64,000 bases of DNA from Intestinibaculum porci. Its GTDB lineage: Bacteria; Bacillota_I; Bacilli_A; Erysipelotrichales; Coprobacillaceae. Where the stretch lies: contig NZ_AP019309.1 of assembly GCF_003925875.1 (NCBI RefSeq), forward strand, positions 868,001 to 932,000. Reading direction: 5' to 3'. The notes below the pieces were generated by a model. The model was not told the origin of the DNA and ran no database searches. It saw only the letters and a list, made by a program, of their open reading frames with translations. The position numbers were made by a program, and so were the translations under genes. Shown here in pieces: positions 1,049-64,000 of the stretch (the stretch's first letter is position 1; every line of letters begins with the position of its first letter).

Positions 1049-2575
<1,527 letters not shown>

Positions 2576-2838
2576 TAGGGAGAAATGCGTGTTTCTTTTC
2601 GGTTTTCTCTGCTTTGCAGAGAAGGAAGACCCTTGAAAACCGCATACAATCAAAAGCAAAGAGAAGACTTATTAATTCAAATTAGTAAGACTTCCTGCAA
2701 ACACTATATAAGGATAAGATCAGAGAAACATCAAAGGTCTAGAATCTGGTATAGTGGGCAAAAGCTAAGATAAACAAGAGAAACAGTTAGATCAAGAATA
2801 ACAGTCAGTAAACTCAAGCTTATTCATATCAACTTTCA
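2576..2838 (+). other. 16S-23S internal transcribed spacer without tRNA genes
   Basis: About 263 bases. It has a perfect hairpin (TTCTCTGC/GCAGAGAA, 2605-2623), a boxA-like CCTTGAAAACC at 2631, and a stem of about ten base pairs at 2668-2689 whose loop is the only part of the spacer that differs from the second operon. No tRNA-Ile or tRNA-Ala cloverleaf can be folded from it. Confidence 0.75.
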
Positions 2839-5723
<2,885 letters not shown>

Positions 5724-5762
5724 AGAGAAGAGATTGTGTGCGGTTTTCAGGGGAGATCCTGA

Positions 5763-5874
5763 GATCCGGTAGCGATGGCGTGATGGAGACACCCGTACCC
5801 ATGCCGAACACGGAAGTTAAGCATCACAGCGTCGACGATAGTCAGAAATGGCGACAATAGAACGCTGCCGGTCG
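5763..5874 (+). rRNA. rrf: 5S ribosomal RNA, copy 1
   Basis: The terminal helix is visible: CCGGTAGCG near 5766 pairs with CGCTGCCGG ending at 5871. The conserved CCGAACACGGAAGTTAAGC lies in the middle. It follows the 23S gene by about 40 bases and is followed directly by the operon terminator. Confidence 0.92.
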
Positions 5875-5877
5875 ATA

Positions 5878-5904
5878 GCACCTCAGATGAGGTGCTTTTG
5901 TTTT
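5878..5904 (+). terminator. rRNA operon terminator 1, copy 1
   Basis: Perfect 7-bp stem GCACCTC/GAGGTGC with an AGAT loop, followed by TTTTGTTTT. The same structure ends the second operon. Confidence 0.9.
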
Positions 5905-5931
5905 GCGTGAGATTTATGTCTCACGCTTTTT
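5905..5931 (+). terminator. Second tandem terminator after rRNA copy 1
   Basis: Perfect 8-bp stem GCGTGAGA/TCTCACGC with a TTTATG loop and a five-T tail, directly after the first terminator. It lies outside the repeated unit, so only the first rRNA operon has the double stop. Confidence 0.85.
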
Positions 5932-6017
5932 ATATTGTGTTCATAATTATTGAGTAAGATATTTTTAATCCATGAGATTCACATATTGTCATGTTATGAT
6001 TTTAAAGAGGTGGTTTT

Positions 6018-6602
6018 ATGGCATCAATATATGATCCTTATTATGATGATTTAGTTAAGATTCAACAAAAGGTTCTTGATGATATAGAAGATATTAAACA
6101 GGATATTATGCAAAAGAAAGGTATGAATCCGATCGAACATTGCTTATCACGAATTAAGGATGAAGCAAGCATGAAAGAAAAATGTCTCAGAAAGCATCTG
6201 CCCATTAATAGTGATTCTGCTTTACATAAGATTCAGGATGCCATTGGTGTGCGCATTGTCTGTGCTTTCCTTGATGACGTTTATGATATTAGAGATGCTT
6301 TACTGCATGAAAAGCATTACGATATTATTCGCGAAAAAGACTATATCAAAAATGTCAAACCATCAGGCTATCGCTCTTTACATTTAATTGTCAAAGTTGA
6401 TGGTTACTTTGTGGAATTTCAGCTGAGAACTATTTCTCAGGATACTTGGGCTGCTTTAGAGCATCATATGCGCTATAAAAAGGATATTAAAGGCGACATA
6501 AAGCTTATAGAAAGTGAACTGAAACGCTGCGCGGACGAGCTTGCGGCCACAGATATCTCTATGCAGACAATTAGAAATATGATCATTGAAGAAGGTGAAT
6601 AA
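6018..6602 (+). CDS. Small alarmone synthetase (RelA/SpoT nucleotidyltransferase domain)
   Basis: This 194-residue protein is a stand-alone (p)ppGpp synthetase of the YjbM/YwaC (RelQ/RelP) type. It makes ppGpp or pppGpp by moving pyrophosphate from ATP to GDP or GTP. Synthetase signatures are present in order: DAIGVRIVC near residue 74, KNVKPSGYRSLHLIVKV near 116 and VEFQLRT..DTWAALEH near 132-150. There is no HD hydrolase, TGS or ACT domain, so it should only synthesise. The start at 6018 has AGAGGTGG about 7 bases before it. It sits between two rRNA operons and one base ahead of a response regulator gene, so it is probably co-transcribed with that two-component system. Confidence 0.88.
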   Translation: MASIYDPYYDDLVKIQQKVLDDIEDIKQDIMQKKGMNPIEHCLSRIKDEASMKEKCLRKHLPINSDSALHKIQDAIGVRIVCAFLDDVYDIRDALLHEKHYDIIREKDYIKNVKPSGYRSLHLIVKVDGYFVEFQLRTISQDTWAALEHHMRYKKDIKGDIKLIESELKRCADELAATDISMQTIRNMIIEEGE

Positions 6603-6603
6603 T

Positions 6604-7281
6604 ATGAGATTACTCTTAGCAGAGGATACACAAGATTTAAATAAAGCGATTGCGACGGTATTAAGACATTATAACTATGAAGTGGACTGTGCCTTTGATG
6701 GTGAAGAAGCTTTAACATATTTAAACCGCCAGCATTATGAGGCGGTGATCTTAGATATCATGATGCCGAAAAAAGATGGTATTGCAGTTTTGCAGGATAT
6801 GCGATCTAACGATGATATGACACCAGTGTTATTATTAACCGCAAAAGCAGAAGTGGATGATCGTGTCACTGGCTTAGATGCGGGGGCCGACGATTATTTG
6901 GTTAAACCTTTTGCAATGAAAGAGCTGCTTGCGCGCATTCGCTCACTTACCAGACGTAATGATGATTATGATCGTCGTGATGTCAGTGTTGGCAATGTCA
7001 CTTTAAATGTGGAGAATGAAGAATTATCATCGCTTAATTCCATTCGTTTATCACACAAGGAATGTGAGCTCTTTAAAGAACTAGCGCTTCATAAGAATCC
7101 TTTAGATACCAAGTATCTGTTTGAAAAGATCTGGAAGGGCGAAGAGGTGAGTGAAGATACCATTTGGCTTTATATCTCTTATTTGAAAGGAAAACTGCAG
7201 TCGATCAATGCGAATATTACCATTGCGGGAGAGCGTGGCGGCAGTTTTCAGCTTGTGAACAATGAGCAAGAATGCGATTAA
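6604..7281 (+). CDS. OmpR-family response regulator
   Basis: 225 residues with an N-terminal receiver domain (acidic pair ED near residue 7, phospho-acceptor Asp in ILDIMMP near residue 51, conserved Lys in VKPF near 101) and a C-terminal winged-helix DNA-binding domain. The ATG at 6604 directly follows the stop of the alarmone synthetase and has AAGGTG 8 bases upstream; an upstream in-frame start at 6586 would overlap that gene and is not preferred. The last 20 bases overlap the histidine kinase gene, the normal layout of a partner pair. The target genes are unknown. Confidence 0.92.
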   Translation: MRLLLAEDTQDLNKAIATVLRHYNYEVDCAFDGEEALTYLNRQHYEAVILDIMMPKKDGIAVLQDMRSNDDMTPVLLLTAKAEVDDRVTGLDAGADDYLVKPFAMKELLARIRSLTRRNDDYDRRDVSVGNVTLNVENEELSSLNSIRLSHKECELFKELALHKNPLDTKYLFEKIWKGEEVSEDTIWLYISYLKGKLQSINANITIAGERGGSFQLVNNEQECD

Positions 7282-8500
7282 TAAATTACGCCTGAAATTT
7301 ATTGGTATCTTCATGGGCGTCCTTATTGCGATCATTGGTTTATTCTCTGTATCTATTCATATTATTAACCAGTATAATCGCAATCGCGTGATCAATGCGG
7401 CTTTAAGCTATATCGTAGATCAGAACGGAGAAATCAATAAAAACCCGAAAGCTGGTTCTTTTGATGATTTCTCAACGGAATTCCATTATTCAGCCCGCTA
7501 CTTCTCTGTCACTTACAATAAAGATGGCTCGATTGCTCGTTCCACCACCAGCCATATTGCGGCCGTTTCTCGCAGCCAGGCTTATAATCTTGCCAGAAAA
7601 GCTTTACGCAGCGGTGATGAGACAGGGCACGATGGCGTTTATTATTATAAAGTTGCAAAAGTCGGCAAAAATCAGACTTTGGTTGTTTTTCTTGATTGTA
7701 CGACGCAAATTGAATCAAGCAAAAACCTTACAATAACTATTATTATGGTCACTTTACCAGGTATTTTATTGGTCTTTGTTTGCGCTCTCGCTATTTCGAA
7801 GCGAGCGGTTCGACCAGAAATCGAAAATGCGGAAAGACAGAATCTATTCATTACGAATGCTTCCCATGAATTGAAAACACCGTTAGCGGTTATTCGCGCG
7901 AACATGGAAGTCGAAGAGATGATTAACGGTGAAGATGAGTGGACGAAATCGACGATGAATCAGGTGGAGCGCATGAATGGTCTCATCCAGAATTTAGTGA
8001 TGATCGCCAAAGCGCAGGAACAGGAAAATCGGGAAGGAGACGCAATAATTAATGTCTCGACATTAATTAATGAGTCCATCGATCCTTTTATGTCCCTTGT
8101 GCAAAGTGAAAACAAACAAATCATCAGGACAATTCAAAGTGATGTGATGATGAAAGGTGATGCCTCAAAAGTGCGGCAGCTTTGTTCCTTGTTAGTTGAT
8201 AATGCCGTAAAGTATTGTGATGATCAGGGCACGATCACGGTTGCCTTAAGTGCGTTAAAGAAAGATAAAGTGATTCGATTGGACGTTTCAAATACCTATG
8301 CAGATGGCAAGAATGTCGATTACACCAAATTCTTTGACCGCTTCTATCGCGCTGATCAATCGCATAACATTGATCGTGGCGGTTATGGTATTGGTTTATC
8401 GATTGCAGAAAGTATTGTTCGTCTTTATGGCGGCAGTATTCATGCCTCATGGAAAGAAGGCATCATTACCTTTACCTGCATGATGAAGAGTAAGATTTAA
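7262..8500 (+). CDS. Membrane sensor histidine kinase
   Basis: 412 residues. A transmembrane segment near 14-35, an extracytoplasmic loop to about 158 and a second transmembrane segment (about 159-180) give a classic sensor topology. The DHp domain has the phospho-acceptor His in NASHELKTPL near 198, and the ATP-binding domain has the N box (LLVDNAVKYC), the F box (FFDRFYRAD) and the G2 box (GGYGIGLSIA). It is the partner of the preceding regulator; the genes overlap by 20 bases. The extracytoplasmic domain shows no ligand motif I recognise. Confidence 0.92.
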   Translation: MSKNAINKLRLKFIGIFMGVLIAIIGLFSVSIHIINQYNRNRVINAALSYIVDQNGEINKNPKAGSFDDFSTEFHYSARYFSVTYNKDGSIARSTTSHIAAVSRSQAYNLARKALRSGDETGHDGVYYYKVAKVGKNQTLVVFLDCTTQIESSKNLTITIIMVTLPGILLVFVCALAISKRAVRPEIENAERQNLFITNASHELKTPLAVIRANMEVEEMINGEDEWTKSTMNQVERMNGLIQNLVMIAKAQEQENREGDAIINVSTLINESIDPFMSLVQSENKQIIRTIQSDVMMKGDASKVRQLCSLLVDNAVKYCDDQGTITVALSALKKDKVIRLDVSNTYADGKNVDYTKFFDRFYRADQSHNIDRGGYGIGLSIAESIVRLYGGSIHASWKEGIITFTCMMKSKI

Positions 8501-8515
8501 GGCTTACTCTTTTTT
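8486..8515 (+). terminator. Terminator after the two-component operon
   Basis: Stem AAGAGTAAG/CTTACTCTT with an 8-base loop and a T run. The kinase stop codon lies in the loop, so the operon ends cleanly before the second rRNA promoter. Confidence 0.85.
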
Positions 8516-8662
8516 ACTATATTGTCGACGTATTTAAGCGCCATTGTGACGTTTTATAAAAGGATAAAAATGACCTGACATGTAAAAATGAGCGATTATG
8601 CGCAATAAAATGCCTGTATACCGTATTTTTTAACGAAAGATTCAAAAAATCTCAAAAAACAC

Positions 8663-8691
8663 TTTACAAGCAGGAAGGAAAATGGTATATT
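8663..8691 (+). promoter_or_regulatory. rRNA operon promoter, copy 2
   Basis: TTTACA (8663-8668), a 17-base spacer and TATATT (8686-8691), identical to copy 1. The A/T tract upstream differs from copy 1 at a handful of bases, which could give the two operons slightly different strength. Confidence 0.8.
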
Positions 8692-8721
8692 TAGTTAGCA
8701 CTCCGGTAAGGAGCGCATGCA

Positions 8722-8736
8722 GAACATTGAAAACTG
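8722..8736 (+). promoter_or_regulatory. boxA-like antitermination site, copy 2
   Basis: Identical to the element at 932-946 and in the same place in the rRNA leader. Confidence 0.5.
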
Positions 8737-8838
8737 AAAAGAAACACGTCAAAGAACTCATTTTTGAGCGGTGAACAAAACACCGAAAACAAATAGTCAG
8801 AAGTAATTTAAAGAGCTTATTCAAAGCTCCATTCATAA

Positions 8839-10365
<1,527 letters not shown>

Positions 10366-10628
10366 TAGGGAGAAATGCGTGTTTCTTTTCGGTTTTCTCT
10401 GCTTTGCAGAGAAGGAAGACCCTTGAAAACCGCATACAATCAAAAGCAAAGAGAAGACTTATTAATTAAGATTAGTAAGACTTCCTGCAAACACTATATA
10501 AGGATAAGATCAGAGAAACATCAAAGGTCTAGAATCTGGTATAGTGGGCAAAAGCTAAGATAAACAAGAGAAACAGTTAGATCAAGAATAACAGTCAGTA
10601 AACTCAAGCTTATTCATATCAACTTTCA
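10366..10628 (+). other. 16S-23S spacer, copy 2, without tRNA
   Basis: Same as copy 1 apart from two base changes (A10468, G10470) in the loop of the AT-rich hairpin. No tRNA gene. Confidence 0.75.
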
Positions 10629-13513
<2,885 letters not shown>

Positions 13514-13552
13514 AGAGAAGAGATTGTGTGCGGTTTTCAGGGGAGATCCTGA

Positions 13553-13664
13553 GATCCGGTAGCGATGGCGTGATGGAGACACCCGTACCCATGCCGAACA
13601 CGGAAGTTAAGCATCACAGCGTCGACGATAGTCAGAAATGGCGACAATAGAACGCTGCCGGTCG
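13553..13664 (+). rRNA. rrf: 5S ribosomal RNA, copy 2
   Basis: Identical to copy 1, with the same CCGGTAGCG/CGCTGCCGG terminal helix. Confidence 0.92.
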
Positions 13665-56763: not shown

Positions 56764-56770
56764 GCGAACA

Positions 56771-56829
56771 ACGGGAATGAAGTTTCCCTGGCGTATGCCG
56801 AACTGCTAGTGAGCTAATGACTTCTATTT
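56771..56829 (+). promoter_or_regulatory. Fluoride riboswitch (crcB motif) aptamer
   Basis: The parts of the fluoride aptamer occur in order: GGGAATGAAGTTTCCC (P1 with the AUGA core), CCGAACTGC after it, then GCTAATGACTTCTA, which matches the consensus GCUGAUGACUUCUA-like 3' strand. AAGT pairs with ACTT and GGG with CCC as in the known structure. The gene behind it is a CLC-type transporter, the second most common class under this riboswitch after crcB. Assignment is by eye from the consensus. Confidence 0.88.
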
Positions 56830-56853
56830 TAAGGGAGTCATTAGCATTTTTTT
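56813..56853 (+). terminator. Riboswitch-controlled terminator
   Basis: GCTAATGACT pairs perfectly with AGTCATTAGC, followed by a seven-T run. Its 5' arm is the 3' strand of the aptamer, so fluoride binding and termination exclude each other: the gene should be ON with fluoride. Confidence 0.88.
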
Positions 56854-56872
56854 CGTTTAAGGGGGAAATATG

Positions 56873-58093
56873 ATGAAAAAATTAGGAGCAGAATATCGCT
56901 CATTAATAATCCTTTCAGGAGTAGCGATCATTATGGGGATCTTAGTAGGGGCAATGGATGCTTTATTCGCATCTGTTTTATTACTTGTCTCCCATCTTCG
57001 TGATCAATACTTGTATTTTGTCTTACCAGGGTTACCGTTTATTGGCATGTTCATTGTCTGGTACTACACCAATTTTGGAAAAGAAAGCATTCAGGGGATG
57101 AGTCTGATTTTTGAAACCGGCCATGGAATGCGTGAAGCTTTGCCTCTGCGGATGATTCCGATGGTCATGGTGGGCACGTGGTTATCCCATCTCTTTGGTG
57201 CGAGTGTCGGCCGTGAAGGCGTCGCCGTGCAAATTGGCGGCACCTTATCTTATGAACTAGGGAAACGTTTGCCGTTAAAAGAAAACAAACGCATCTTTTT
57301 AATGATGGGAATGGCTGCCGGTTTTGGCGGCGTCTTTCGGACACCCTTTGCCGGCACTTTATTTGCCTTAGAAGTCTTAGCGCCAGGAACCATCGCTTAT
57401 GAAGCGCTATTGCCAAGTTTAGTAGCTGCTTTATGTGCTAGTGCTACGTCTGGTATATTAGGTTTAAAAGGTTTTACCTACGCTTTAAAAGGAAGTGTTT
57501 CTTTAGACCTCAATACCTTGATCACCTTAGTGATCGCGGGCATTCTCTTTGGCCTGATTGGCGCGCTTTTCGCTTATGGGGAAAAACAGGCCAAAGGTTT
57601 CTTTCAAAGGAAGATCGAAAATCCTTACAAGCGGATTGCTTTTTTAGGCGTCATTATTATGGCTTTTATGTATTTGACCAATGGCCGTTACAGCGGCCTG
57701 GGTTCGAATCTGATTACGATGAGTTTTGATGGCCATACCATCTATGTCTGGGATTTTATCGTTAAGTTAGCGTTAACGCTTTTATCGTTAGCGGCGGGCT
57801 ATCAGGGCGGGGAAGTGACACCATTATTTTCTATTGGGGCCACGGCTGGCTTTGTCTTATCACTCTTTTTACCCATGCCGGCTGTCTTATTATCAGCGTT
57901 AGGCTACGCGGCGGTCTTTGGCGGGGCGACCAATACGCTATTAGCGCCGATTCTCATTGGCGGGGAAGTCTTTGGTTTTAGCCATTTGCCTTATTTCCTG
58001 ATTGTCTGCGTCCTTGCTTTTGTCGTGAACCATAACTTATCCATTTATACCAAACAAAAAACACGATCAGTGCTTGACGAACCGTGTGCATAA
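56873..58093 (+). CDS. CLC-type fluoride/proton antiporter
   Basis: 406 residues with about ten to twelve membrane helices. CLC motifs are GASVGREGVAVQIGG near 104, GGVFRTPFAGTLFALE near 140 and YQGGEVTPLFSIGA near 307. The selectivity region lacks the GSGIP of chloride-type CLCs, and the riboswitch marks it as a CLC-F that expels fluoride from the cytoplasm. Of the two ATGs at 56870 and 56873 the second is 7 bases from GGGGG. Its last 27 bases overlap the convergent VanZ-like gene. Confidence 0.9.
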   Translation: MKKLGAEYRSLIILSGVAIIMGILVGAMDALFASVLLLVSHLRDQYLYFVLPGLPFIGMFIVWYYTNFGKESIQGMSLIFETGHGMREALPLRMIPMVMVGTWLSHLFGASVGREGVAVQIGGTLSYELGKRLPLKENKRIFLMMGMAAGFGGVFRTPFAGTLFALEVLAPGTIAYEALLPSLVAALCASATSGILGLKGFTYALKGSVSLDLNTLITLVIAGILFGLIGALFAYGEKQAKGFFQRKIENPYKRIAFLGVIIMAFMYLTNGRYSGLGSNLITMSFDGHTIYVWDFIVKLALTLLSLAAGYQGGEVTPLFSIGATAGFVLSLFLPMPAVLLSALGYAAVFGGATNTLLAPILIGGEVFGFSHLPYFLIVCVLAFVVNHNLSIYTKQKTRSVLDEPCA

Positions 58094-61057: not shown

Positions 61058-62036
61058 TATTTAAGCGTTCACTCCTAGTGCTTCCCTTGATCGTGCTTTC
61101 AATCTGTTCGAAAGCCTCTTTCGCTTCGGGAATCGGTAAGAACGGATAGTTATGAATGAGATGATGACCAGTGATCAGTCTGGCATTTACATGGGCAGCT
61201 TTAAGCTTGCGATAGAAGCGGACAATATCTGGATAAAGCAGTTCATTGGTGCCGCCAAAGAGAGTCACATCACTTAAGCAGGTGTAATTGCCAAAGTAAG
61301 GAGATACCTTATAGGCATACAGCGACTTTGTACCTGCCCACATCGTACCTAAACGTTTAATGCCATAGGAAGAGAGCAGCGGATCAATTTTTTCTAGTTG
61401 ACCGCCATCACGACTCATCGTGAGATCTAACCATGGCGAAATAAGAATCAATCGATCAGGCTGCAGATCAGAGCCTAACGATTCGCAAAAACCAGTCGCT
61501 AAAGCGCCGCCGGCACCTGCACCAATGATCGTTAAAGGAAGAGTGCGATCGATCGAAGCGTAGAGTTTTTCTAATAAATCATAGGCTTCTTCATGGGTGG
61601 CGGTGGGGACTAACGGATACATGGGAACATAGACGCAGGCATCGAGATCTTTCGCTAAACGATCGACAAAACGCCATTCATAAAAGGAGATCGGCTGGAT
61701 AAAACCACCGCTATGTAAATAGATAATGTGGTATTTTGGGTGTTTCGATGCCCGTACGACAAATAACTGCTGACTGGCAAAAGTCGTTTCATCGACATGG
61801 GAAAGCATATAGTGAGAAAGTTTATATTTCTTTTTATTTTCGATGGACTGTTCATAAAGAAAGCGCTCAAACGCTTCAGGATGAGTGTATGCATCTTTCT
61901 TGCTCGTGATTTTAATGACTTCTTCGACGGCTTTTGAAGTCATCGTATGGTGAAAACATTTTTTATATAAATAACGGATTCCTCTCAGTGTCAGCAGGGA
62001 TGCTGTCATTAAGGATACGAATTGTACTTTTTTCAT
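61050..62036 (-). CDS. Alpha/beta-hydrolase of the HSL/acetyl-hydrolase family, nucleophile missing
   Basis: 328 residues with an N-terminal membrane anchor (about 1-22). The oxyanion motif HGGG appears as HSGGF near 107. The nucleophile elbow, GDSAGG in the family, reads GAGAGG near 173, so Ser is Gly and the preceding Asp is Ala. The acid position GxxD reads GGTNELLYPD; the terminal His is kept in HNYPF. It is predicted inactive as an esterase. It precedes the adenosine-deaminase-like gene by 23 bases on the same strand. An in-frame GTG lies at 62045; AAAGGG fits ATG 62036. Confidence 0.8.
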   Translation of the reverse strand: MKKVQFVSLMTASLLTLRGIRYLYKKCFHHTMTSKAVEEVIKITSKKDAYTHPEAFERFLYEQSIENKKKYKLSHYMLSHVDETTFASQQLFVVRASKHPKYHIIYLHSGGFIQPISFYEWRFVDRLAKDLDACVYVPMYPLVPTATHEEAYDLLEKLYASIDRTLPLTIIGAGAGGALATGFCESLGSDLQPDRLILISPWLDLTMSRDGGQLEKIDPLLSSYGIKRLGTMWAGTKSLYAYKVSPYFGNYTCLSDVTLFGGTNELLYPDIVRFYRKLKAAHVNARLITGHHLIHNYPFLPIPEAKEAFEQIESTIKGSTRSERLNML

Positions 62037-62149
62037 AAAAAACACGCCCTTTCTTTTAAGCCTTGCTTAAATTGCCTCATAGTTTAGCACGCTCTTTACA
62101 AAAGTCAAATTCACATTTGTCACAAAATGGAAAAACAGTTTACAAAACA

Positions 62150-62193
62150 GGCGGTCTAACGCTCGTGACTTCAGTCATGAGATAAAGACCGCC
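62150..62193 (-). repeat. Right-end double hairpin of the IscB element
   Basis: The 9-bp inner hairpin CTCGTGACT/AGTCATGAG is enclosed by a perfect 8-bp outer stem GGCGGTCT/AGACCGCC. It begins 10 bases after the iscB stop codon and may also work as a terminator or stabilise the transcript. Confidence 0.8.
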
Positions 62194-62202
62194 GATAGCA
62201 TC

Positions 62203-63684
62203 CTAGACATATACCAGTCCGGCATTTTCTCTGATGATCGTGCATTTGGCAGCAGGAAAATTTCTTTTCTCGCATCCGACAGCGCGGTAATAGCGACCGC
62301 CGGTAAGCTGACTCTGCAGCACATATCGCTCGCCATCAAAAAGAAATACAGCACCCGGCATGAGCCTGTCTGCATCGTTATAATAGCGCGTTGATTTTGT
62401 CACCGTCAGCCGCGAAACCTGATCAGGGTATTTCTGTCTGAACTCCTCAAGTGAATCGCCTTTCTGTTCAAATCGCTTATGCCTGTTCCGGCAGACAATT
62501 CTTCCATCAAGACGATACGTCCTTTCACGCTGATTGTTTATGTTTGCCCTGCTGTGTCGGCAAAACTGCACGATTTCAAATGTGCGGGGGAGTCTTCGGA
62601 CAGGTGTAATGCCTGATCCGATGCATGCGATGCAGAGTGCATCGATGTCATGATCCTTTGGAAGTCCTAAATCATCTCTCAACGTCTGTGTTTCCACGCC
62701 AGTGCAGAAATGCGCATGATCTTCCCCGTATGTCTCTGTCATCCATTGCCAGATATATGGAATAGCCTGATTCAGAACGGAAAGTGAGCCGTATTTCTTC
62801 ATGACGCCTTTCATGTCAGATCTTAGCTCTCCTTTATGTATTCGCGCATGGCATTTCATGCAGACGCCGAGAATATTTTCCGGCAGGTCGCTTCCGCCCC
62901 GAGAGCGAGGGATGATGTGATGATAGTGTTCTATCGGAGCACCGCACATTGGGCATACGCCATTCTGTCTTATGTATACGTACTCATGCGAGTTTTTATA
63001 GCCTTTCATGCGTCCGTTCTGGAAGTCAGTGCCGTAGCACTTTCCGTTATCCATCTGCATGAAGGCAAACTTATTGGCTTCAATCGTCCAGTCAGTCACG
63101 GGAAGAATAGCACTTATACGGCAAATCAGATTTTCGTGTGTCTGCACAAGCTGATTCGCAGTTGGCGTAAGCCATTTCTCGGGGCGTTTCCTGTAGCTGA
63201 ACTTAGCCGTCGTATTGACAATATCCTTCACCATAACAGGTTTCTTATATCCGGGCAGCATTCGCCCGTCTGGAAATTCTGTCGTCGTTCCGTTTGCTTT
63301 GGCACGGCGTTTTCTTCTCAGGCGTTCGCCTCTTCGGCTTGCCTGACGATGCGATTTTCTCGCTTCCATGTTCTTCGGTACGTCTCTGTTTCTGGATGCG
63401 GTATGTGATCTGTACACGCATTTCCCTTCAGGCGTCACAACTGCAGCGCCTATGTTTGTACGACCCGGATCAATGCCACCGAAAAGCGGCTGCGTGTTCT
63501 TGGATCCGTCGTACTTCAGCTGAATGACGAAAGGGACATGCGATACAATTCTCGCCTTTCCCTTATTGAGAAGACGCTTCACATGTCCGCGTCTTCTGGT
63601 AGGCATCAGCGGATCTCCGTCCGCAGACAGAACATAAATATAATCTGTTTCAGACAGTTCCTGCTCAAGTTTTGTCTTAGGCAT
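62203..63684 (-). CDS. iscB: IscB RNA-guided nuclease (OMEGA system)
   Basis: 493 residues. The order is the full IscB architecture: PLMP domain (GDPLMPTRRRGHVKRLLNKG, 23-42), RuvC-I with D72 (GGIDPGRTNIG), Arg-rich bridge helix (about 108-130), RuvC-II with E202 (TIEANKF), HNH domain with zinc Cys 244/247 and 275/278 and catalytic His (YHHIIPRSRGG, 254-264), RuvC-III with D348 (DHDIDAL) and a C-terminal domain that should bind the TAM. All catalytic residues are intact. The frame extends to 63759, but GGGGGG is 9 bases before ATG 63684. Confidence 0.93.
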   Translation of the reverse strand: MPKTKLEQELSETDYIYVLSADGDPLMPTRRRGHVKRLLNKGKARIVSHVPFVIQLKYDGSKNTQPLFGGIDPGRTNIGAAVVTPEGKCVYRSHTASRNRDVPKNMEARKSHRQASRRGERLRRKRRAKANGTTTEFPDGRMLPGYKKPVMVKDIVNTTAKFSYRKRPEKWLTPTANQLVQTHENLICRISAILPVTDWTIEANKFAFMQMDNGKCYGTDFQNGRMKGYKNSHEYVYIRQNGVCPMCGAPIEHYHHIIPRSRGGSDLPENILGVCMKCHARIHKGELRSDMKGVMKKYGSLSVLNQAIPYIWQWMTETYGEDHAHFCTGVETQTLRDDLGLPKDHDIDALCIACIGSGITPVRRLPRTFEIVQFCRHSRANINNQRERTYRLDGRIVCRNRHKRFEQKGDSLEEFRQKYPDQVSRLTVTKSTRYYNDADRLMPGAVFLFDGERYVLQSQLTGGRYYRAVGCEKRNFPAAKCTIIRENAGLVYV

Positions 63685-63921
63685 ATCATGATGCCCCCCT
63701 TCATAAGATTCCGGTGCCGTCGCCTGTAAGGCACTAACATCCGGCAATAATGTTTCCATAGTCTGGGTGCGTCTTTAGGGTTCGGGAGCCTTGGAATCAG
63801 CCCCGGTCCTTGCATCTCCGGAGGAATGCGACGCATCCATATGACTCTGCTCAATTAATCATTTCCATCATCGCTCACTCTTTCAAGCTCGCGACTTTAG
63901 TCGTGAGAAATCGACTCGAAA
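63685..63921 (-). ncRNA. Probable omega-RNA region of the IscB element
   Basis: IscB omega-RNAs are encoded just upstream of the iscB start and run from the left element end into the gene. This 237-base noncoding stretch has the right place and length, holds the left-end hairpin, further GC-rich stems (GGATGCGTCGCATTCC, GGAGATGC...) and a GGGGGG segment directly before the start codon. The exact ends and fold are not derived here. Confidence 0.65.
63888..63907 (-). repeat. Left-end hairpin of the IscB element
   Basis: CTCGCGACT-TT-AGTCGTGAG with one G-T pair; 9 bp. It differs from the right-end hairpin at only three bases. Confidence 0.8.
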
Positions 63922-63931
63922 GTAAACTGCT

Positions 63932-64000
63932 TTAATAAATAGAACCTTTTAATTCGTCTTCATTGGCATTATCCATGCGACTGTTTTTTAAGTTTGTCAG
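63932..64000 (-). CDS. C-terminal end of a gene leaving the window
   Basis: On the minus strand the last 22 codons of a frame are seen, reading LTNLKNSRMDNANEDELKGS then IY and TAA. The polar, acidic composition suits a protein C-terminus. The IscB element begins 10 bases after this stop codon. The family cannot be named from so little. Confidence 0.4.
   Translation of the reverse strand: MTNLKNSRMDNANEDELKGSIY

What the first reader, a model, noticed from the sequence alone, without database searches (positions are those of the whole stretch)
62150..63921. Complete IscB OMEGA element with both end hairpins and no TnpA
The IscB protein keeps all RuvC (D72, E202, D348) and HNH residues, has an upstream noncoding region of omega-RNA size and lies between two nearly identical hairpins typical of IS200/IS605 ends. 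The element lacks the Y1 transposase, so it depends on one in trans, or the nuclease has been kept for another purpose. Natural IscB proteins from this bacterial class are rarely characterised, and 493 residues is compact.
Basis: partly seen in the sequence, partly recalled or inferred. Interest (0 to 1): 0.75.

Follow-up and report, generated by a model that had tools for sequence, protein, structure and literature searches.

The report
IscB RNA-guided mobile element, transposase elsewhere
This is an intact but otherwise ordinary mobile element that carries IscB, a small RNA-guided DNA cutter related to the ancestor of Cas9, with its guide RNA and both transposon ends, and it probably moves with the help of a transposase encoded elsewhere in the same genome.

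Summary
Window 62144-63915 (1,772 bp) is a complete IscB OMEGA element. IscB (493 aa, 62203-63684, minus strand) lies in the OgeuIscB/OrufIscB clade, and its nuclease residues are invariant in a five-sequence alignment. A covariance model built only from other organisms' iscB leaders matches the window once, just upstream of iscB (E 3.4e-5), and nowhere else in the genome, so the omega-RNA is real although no Rfam family matches. End hairpins, cleavage sites (TTTAC left, TCGAC right) and borders are supported by joined flanks: a 13-bp terminator hairpin here and a continuous thioredoxin-like frame in the 67%-identical congeneric element. The borders predict the target-adjacent motif GTAAA/ATAAA, matching the NTAAA published for OrufIscB. 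There is no TnpA in the element, but the same end hairpin sits on a TnpA-TnpB insertion sequence 1.15 Mb away, and in other genera beside TnpAs of that lineage: a good trans mobiliser. A 46-bp one-hairpin derivative also exists. Lack of TnpA and 493 aa are normal for this clade. New member of a known kind; modest interest. Activity is untested.

The parts
62144..63915 (-). Whole IscB OMEGA element, 1,772 bp, between left flank ..CAGTTTAC and right flank TCGAAAG..
   Evidence: Borders by comparison with the same-genus element and the 46-bp derivative; joined flanks form a 13-bp stem-loop
62139..62143 (+). TTTAC: inferred TnpA left cleavage/target site (host side); read on the minus strand it is GTAAA, the inferred target-adjacent motif for IscB
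   Evidence: TTTAT/TTTAC at the same place in the same-genus element and the 46-bp derivative; OrufIscB motif NTAAA
62150..62193 (+). TnpA-side left end: outer stem GGCGGTCT (62150-62157) / AGACCGCC (62186-62193) around hairpin 62162-62181
   Evidence: Read directly; outer stem changes in pairs: GGTGGTCT/AGACCACC (L121) and GGCAATCT/AGATTGCC (L185)
62203..63684 (-). iscB, 493 aa, RNA-guided endonuclease (PLMP, RuvC I-III, HNH)
   Evidence: NCBIfam guided_IscB 203.6 bits, cut-off 175; Pfam RRXRR and HNH; solved IscBs; tree
63749..63858 (-). omega-RNA core matched by covariance model R1
   Evidence: 32.1 bits, E 3.4e-5, the only match in the window and genome
63700..63915 (-). omega-RNA scaffold as far as it can be drawn: 5' end GTCGATT at 63915; 3' end not determined
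   Evidence: Leader alignment and helices P1, P2, P3 and a pseudoknot with paired changes
63888..63907 (+). TnpA-side right-end hairpin, also the first hairpin of the omega-RNA
63911..63915 (+). TCGAC: inferred TnpA right cleavage site
   Evidence: TTGAC at nearly the same distance from the hairpin in L121 and in the 46-bp derivative
63916..63931 (-). Native guide (host sequence), AGCAGTTTACTTTCGA in RNA sense; length assumed about 16 nt
   Evidence: Position next to the scaffold 5' end; guide plus NTAAA has no other site with 2 or fewer mismatches in the genome

Best explanation
A non-autonomous IS200/IS605-type IscB OMEGA element of the OgeuIscB/OrufIscB clade. Shown by sequence: intact nuclease, conserved omega-RNA, two end hairpins with cleavage sites, borders. 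Inferred: transcription that enters from the host gene upstream makes an RNA whose first ~16 nt are host sequence, followed by the omega-RNA scaffold. IscB with this RNA recognises the empty site (guide next to GTAAA) left when the element is excised, or on a sister chromosome, and cuts it, so that repair from an occupied copy restores the element. At the occupied locus the guide is followed by GTCGA, not NTAAA, so it is not cut. Movement as single-stranded DNA is catalysed in trans, most likely by the TnpA of the TnpA-TnpB insertion sequence at G000:C1:2083594-2085739, which bears the same end hairpin.
For: IscB identity. Omega-RNA: a model from 4 other organisms' leaders hits the window only here and the genome only here, and 5 of 41 held-out loci, each just upstream of iscB. 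Paired changes, by hand-picked helices: P2 AGTC/GACT, AGCC/GGCT, AGAC/GTCT, AGAT/ATCT, AGGC/GCCT. Borders. Purifying selection against the same-genus copy: dN 0.226, dS about 1.75 (saturated). Trans TnpA: identical 22-nt hairpin; in 3 of 8 relatives' hairpin loci a TnpA is present and in all 3 its best match is this TnpA (58, 63, 53%; next best 36-40%). Absence of TnpA is usual: none in 21 related iscB loci by tblastn with the 7 own TnpAs.
Against: No expression or activity data. Only one full copy in the genome and no sequenced empty site of this locus: the same-genus genome (82% complete) gave no match to either flanking gene. The L039 insertion sequence sits at TTGAC while the iscB element sits at TTTAC, and its right hairpin differs in sequence, so TnpA compatibility is not proved. 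Rfam has no match, and 36 of 41 held-out loci gave no model hit at E 1 or less.
Confidence: 0.85

Rival explanations
1. The element is now immobile: a relic whose nuclease is kept by the host for another task such as defence or gene regulation.
For: Single full copy; nuclease under purifying selection; a 46-bp deletion derivative shows that copies decay.
Against: Both ends are intact and match a resident TnpA system. The guide plus motif has no exact match in IMG/VR (0) and no other close site in the genome. Different insertion sites in two species show movement since they parted.
Confidence: 0.1
2. One of the other six full TnpAs, or a TnpA brought by plasmid or phage, mobilises the element, and the hairpin shared with L039 reflects only shared ancestry of ends.
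For: Seven full TnpAs in the genome. IS200/IS605 TnpAs recognise hairpin shape and a few bases (recalled), and another TnpA locus here has an upstream hairpin with a similar loop.
Against: Only the L039 element carries this hairpin among the TnpA loci of this genome; the hairpin and this TnpA lineage go together in three other genera.
Confidence: 0.25
3. The upstream region is only a leader or attenuator, not a guide RNA.
For: Rfam has no match, HEARO included.
Against: Covariance match and paired changes with leaders of the OgeuIscB clade, a clade whose tested members are RNA-guided.
Confidence: 0.03

Closest known systems
OrufIscB (human gut metagenome; PDB 9nvu is an engineered form)
   Same: Same clade, 492 vs 493 aa; 51% identity to the printed REC-swap chain. 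Published motif NTAAA fits the GTAAA/ATAAA inferred here from element borders alone.
   Different: Different host lineage; I did not compare its omega-RNA or element ends; no activity shown here.
OgeuIscB (PDB 7xht, 7utn, 8csz, 11hr)
   Same: Full-length match, E about 1e-116, same domain order and nuclease residues.
   Different: 44% identity; a different subclade of the tree.
iscB of uncultured Erysipelotrichaceae RUG246 (L121/L059, G001)
   Same: 67% identity, same kind of ends, omega-RNA model hit, same genus by the tool's grouping.
   Different: Inserted at a different site, inside a thioredoxin-like gene.
IS200/IS605 TnpA-TnpB elements (L039 here)
   Same: Same left-end hairpin (22 of 22) and the same layout of outer stem plus inner hairpin.
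   Different: Carries its own TnpA and a TnpB-like gene instead of iscB; sits at TTGAC; different right hairpin.

Membership tests
IscB nuclease family | PLMP motif, split RuvC with inserted HNH, bridge helix, about 400-600 aa | tested here: met
   NCBIfam guided_IscB over cut-off; Pfam RRXRR and HNH; alignment with solved IscBs
IscB nuclease family | Falls inside the IscB clade | tested here: met
   100/100 with OgeuIscB and OrufIscB against other IscBs, 41 rows; no Cas9 outgroup was used
IscB nuclease family | RNA-guided cleavage of double-stranded DNA | not testable with these tools
   Needs protein and RNA
OMEGA system | Structured omega-RNA directly upstream of iscB with the guide at its 5' end | tested here: met
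   Model R1, built without the window or its genus, hits 63858-63749; paired changes. That the guide is used is inferred.
OMEGA system | Match to Rfam HEARO (RF02033, number seen) | tested here: not met
   No HEARO match in the window at gathering threshold nor at E 10 over 62000-64000; in one survey 65% of HEARO/IscB leaders match, so this does not define the family
IS200/IS605-type element | Subterminal hairpins at both ends, short cleavage sites, no target duplication | tested here: met
   Hairpins; TTTAC left, TCGAC right; joined flanks without duplication
IS200/IS605-type element | Own Y1 TnpA (autonomy) | tested here: not met
   None in the element; 7 full TnpAs elsewhere in the genome. 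Filed as non-autonomous.
OgeuIscB/OrufIscB clade | Recognition of an NTAAA-type motif (OrufIscB) | tested here: inconclusive
   Inferred from borders of three elements: GTAAA, ATAAA, GTAAA; no binding or cleavage test

The most novel reading that the evidence does not exclude
The insertion works as a switch: the element split the terminator of a co-directional host gene, so host transcription now runs into the guide, omega-RNA and iscB; on excision the terminator closes again, shuts off expression, and is itself the exact site that the RNA already made would cut. An IscB element would thus hitchhike on a TnpA-TnpB element's transposase and tie nuclease expression to its own presence.
Probability: 0.1. 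Interest if true: 0.55.

Novelty: new member of a known kind. Interest (0 to 1): 0.35.

Why it matters
It is a complete, well-bordered natural relative of OrufIscB with a predicted guide, target and target-adjacent motif, in a single-contig genome that also holds the likely trans transposase. That makes the question of how TnpA-less IscB elements move directly testable with defined parts. It also illustrates that element borders alone can predict an IscB target-adjacent motif.

Tried and rejected
Rfam search for HEARO gave no match; replaced by a covariance model from relatives. The first MAFFT leader alignments put helices out of register, so R1 was built from four leaders with P2 and P4 only; P1, P3 and the pseudoknot were read by hand, which is weaker than a blind test. 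In that table the L121 P1 entry was mistyped by one base and is discarded; the sequence printed in the same call shows a 5-bp P1. A check of the pseudoknot (own loop-tail pairing 5.25 bases vs 3.84 for crossed pairs in 8 diverse leaders) supports it moderately; one of the 8 (L124) paired only 3.

Joined-hairpin energy alone is not selective: about 5% of 5,000 random joins are as stable. Stem length is better (13 bp or more in 8 of 20,000 random joins), but neighbouring borders within a few bases do as well or slightly better, and the test was chosen after seeing the sequence. Insertion into terminators is not a rule: of three elements of this kind, one splits a terminator, one lies in a coding region and one at a stop codon.

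Empty-site search in the same-genus genome failed: neither flank matched there. Two protein scans with close queries found no relatives (genome contigs; viral contigs); a wider alignment did. Promoter scan: 4 found against 2.6 expected, uninformative. No structure was predicted, since sequence matches to solved IscBs made it unnecessary.

Full report
What is there. The window is G000:C1:868001-932000 of a single-contig 3.21-Mb genome. The reading frame at 62203-63684 (minus) encodes 493 aa that pass NCBI's guided_IscB cut-off (203.6 vs 175 bits) and match solved IscBs over nearly the whole length (OgeuIscB E about 1e-116; the OrufIscB REC-swap chain E 6e-134 in two stretches). In a 41-row tree it joins the clade of OgeuIscB and OrufIscB with 100/100 support, next to the 67%-identical protein of the rumen Erysipelotrichaceae RUG246. 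The RuvC and HNH residues are invariant across the five aligned sequences. Against the RUG246 gene, dN is 0.226 and dS about 1.75, which is saturated, so the protein is under purifying selection.

Guide RNA. Rfam gives nothing. I built a covariance model from four iscB leaders of other organisms (L122, L127, L134, L091), with no sequence from the window or its genus. In the 64-kb window it hits once, 63858-63749 minus, 32.1 bits, E 3.4e-5; in the whole genome it hits only there. Of 41 held-out loci searched, 5 (L121, L116, L087, L126, L125) hit, the last at E 0.11, each just upstream of iscB; 36 gave nothing at E 1 or less, among them the paralogue L042 and all twelve other own-genome paralogues. 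Hand-read helices change in pairs: P2 is AGTC/GACT here and AGCC/GGCT, AGAC/GTCT, AGAT/ATCT, AGGC/GCCT elsewhere; the pseudoknot is TTCC/GGAA here and TGCC/GGCG, CGTC/GACG elsewhere.

Ends and borders. The two 20-nt palindromes belong to a set of only four such sites in the genome (with 22 nt and up to 3 mismatches again four, reversed control 0): the two ends here, a solo site at 1,871,755, and one at 2,085,703. The solo site is a 46-bp derivative with the outer left part, one hairpin and the outer right part, TTTAC|...TTGAC|. In the RUG246 element (G001) the borders are TTTAT|...TTGAC|, and joining the flanks gives one continuous thioredoxin-like frame; thioredoxins of some relatives align across that junction, e.g. 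in G053 (residues 5-95 of the joined protein, no stop) and G050 (5-101, with 2 TAA counted in the matched stretch), while most matches end before it. For the window element the borders are CAGTTTAC|62144...63915|TCGAAAG; joined, they form a 13-bp stem with a TTCG loop and a T run just after the upstream gene's stop, that is, an intrinsic terminator. Random joins reach 13 bp in 8 of 20,000. The outer stem of the left end changes in pairs among GGCGGTCT/AGACCGCC, GGTGGTCT/AGACCACC and GGCAATCT/AGATTGCC.

Target motif. Seen from iscB, the base run after the element's 3' end is GTAAA here, ATAAA in RUG246 and GTAAA in the 46-bp derivative. OrufIscB is reported to need NTAAA and to be 492 aa (PMC13180657, passages seen). 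The guide plus NTAAA has no other site with 2 or fewer mismatches in the genome (the locus itself shows up with 2 mismatches, both in the motif; one other place has 3; reversed control 1) and no exact match in IMG/VR. This fits targeting of the empty donor site and gives no sign of a defence role.

Mobilisation. The element has no TnpA. Seven full and two partial Y1 TnpA matches lie elsewhere in the genome. The one at 2085217-2085576 heads a TnpA-TnpB insertion sequence (2083594-2085739) whose left hairpin is the same 22 bases as the iscB element's. Of 98 searched genomes (own included) 7 hold the hairpin with at most 1 mismatch, at 13 places. Of 8 such loci in relatives that I inspected, 3 contain a TnpA, and in all three the best match is this L039 TnpA (58, 63 and 53% identity, the other own TnpAs 40% or less); one holds the RUG246 iscB; four hold neither within the held stretch; two further places in relatives were not fetched. 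None of 21 related iscB loci has a TnpA by tblastn with the seven own TnpAs, and a survey found that HEARO/IscB genes are only sparsely near TnpA (PMC9755519, passages seen). So mobilisation in trans by this TnpA lineage is the best reading, though unproved; the two elements sit at different target words (TTTAC vs TTGAC).

Expression. The guide lies outside the element, so transcription must enter from the host. The upstream 468-aa gene is on the same strand and stops 17 nt before the element. Mechanical frames suggest a co-directional upstream gene in most other loci of this clade too, but these are unverified frames.

Novelty. A new member of the OgeuIscB/OrufIscB clade in an Erysipelotrichaceae-like genome (family inferred from the record title of its same-genus relative). 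A full-text search for IscB with Erysipelotrichaceae listed two papers, of which I saw only the listing and abstract starts; a search for OrufIscB listed one. I found no report of this element, but subscription papers are not held.

Noticed in passing
L043-L051 (G000:C1 around 1684333, 609483, 687979, 2171721, 2908566, 1104070, 794495, 1354208, 2278909): Nine copies of another iscB family (458-468 aa, GTCAACTACCCGCGAC.. 5' end). In 9 of 9 the 3' flank begins ATGA (8 of 9 ATGAA), and at least four (L044, L049, L050, L051) sit exactly at what looks like a gene's start codon, so a start-codon-like motif may steer them.
   Followed up: partly
L052, L053, L054 (G000:C1 around 2367304, 2624924, 3142566): Three copies of a third iscB family (441 aa) with ends AGGACTAATTG.. 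and ..TTTAATAAGGAG, unlike the ends of the other families here.
   Followed up: no
L042:3897-5603 minus (G000:C1:1693896-1695602): A second OgeuIscB-clade iscB, 568 aa with a longer C-terminus, 34% identical to the window's; its leader is not hit by model R1.
   Followed up: partly
L041:8528-11441 (G000:C1:934528-937441): An insertion sequence of about 2.1 kb with a 637-aa transposase is flanked by a 397-bp exact direct repeat that includes the start of a HAD phosphatase gene: an unusually long target duplication.
   Followed up: partly
window 1049-13663: Two complete 16S-23S-5S rRNA operons in tandem, 7,790 bp apart.
   Followed up: partly
window 56764-58093: Fluoride riboswitch directly upstream of a chloride-channel-type gene (gene type recalled from its sequence), the expected fluoride exporter arrangement.
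   Followed up: no
G000:C1:1871737-1871782 (L040:3738-3783): 46-bp one-hairpin derivative of the iscB element, inserted so that the motif GTAAA overlaps the stop codon of a thioredoxin-like gene.
   Followed up: yes
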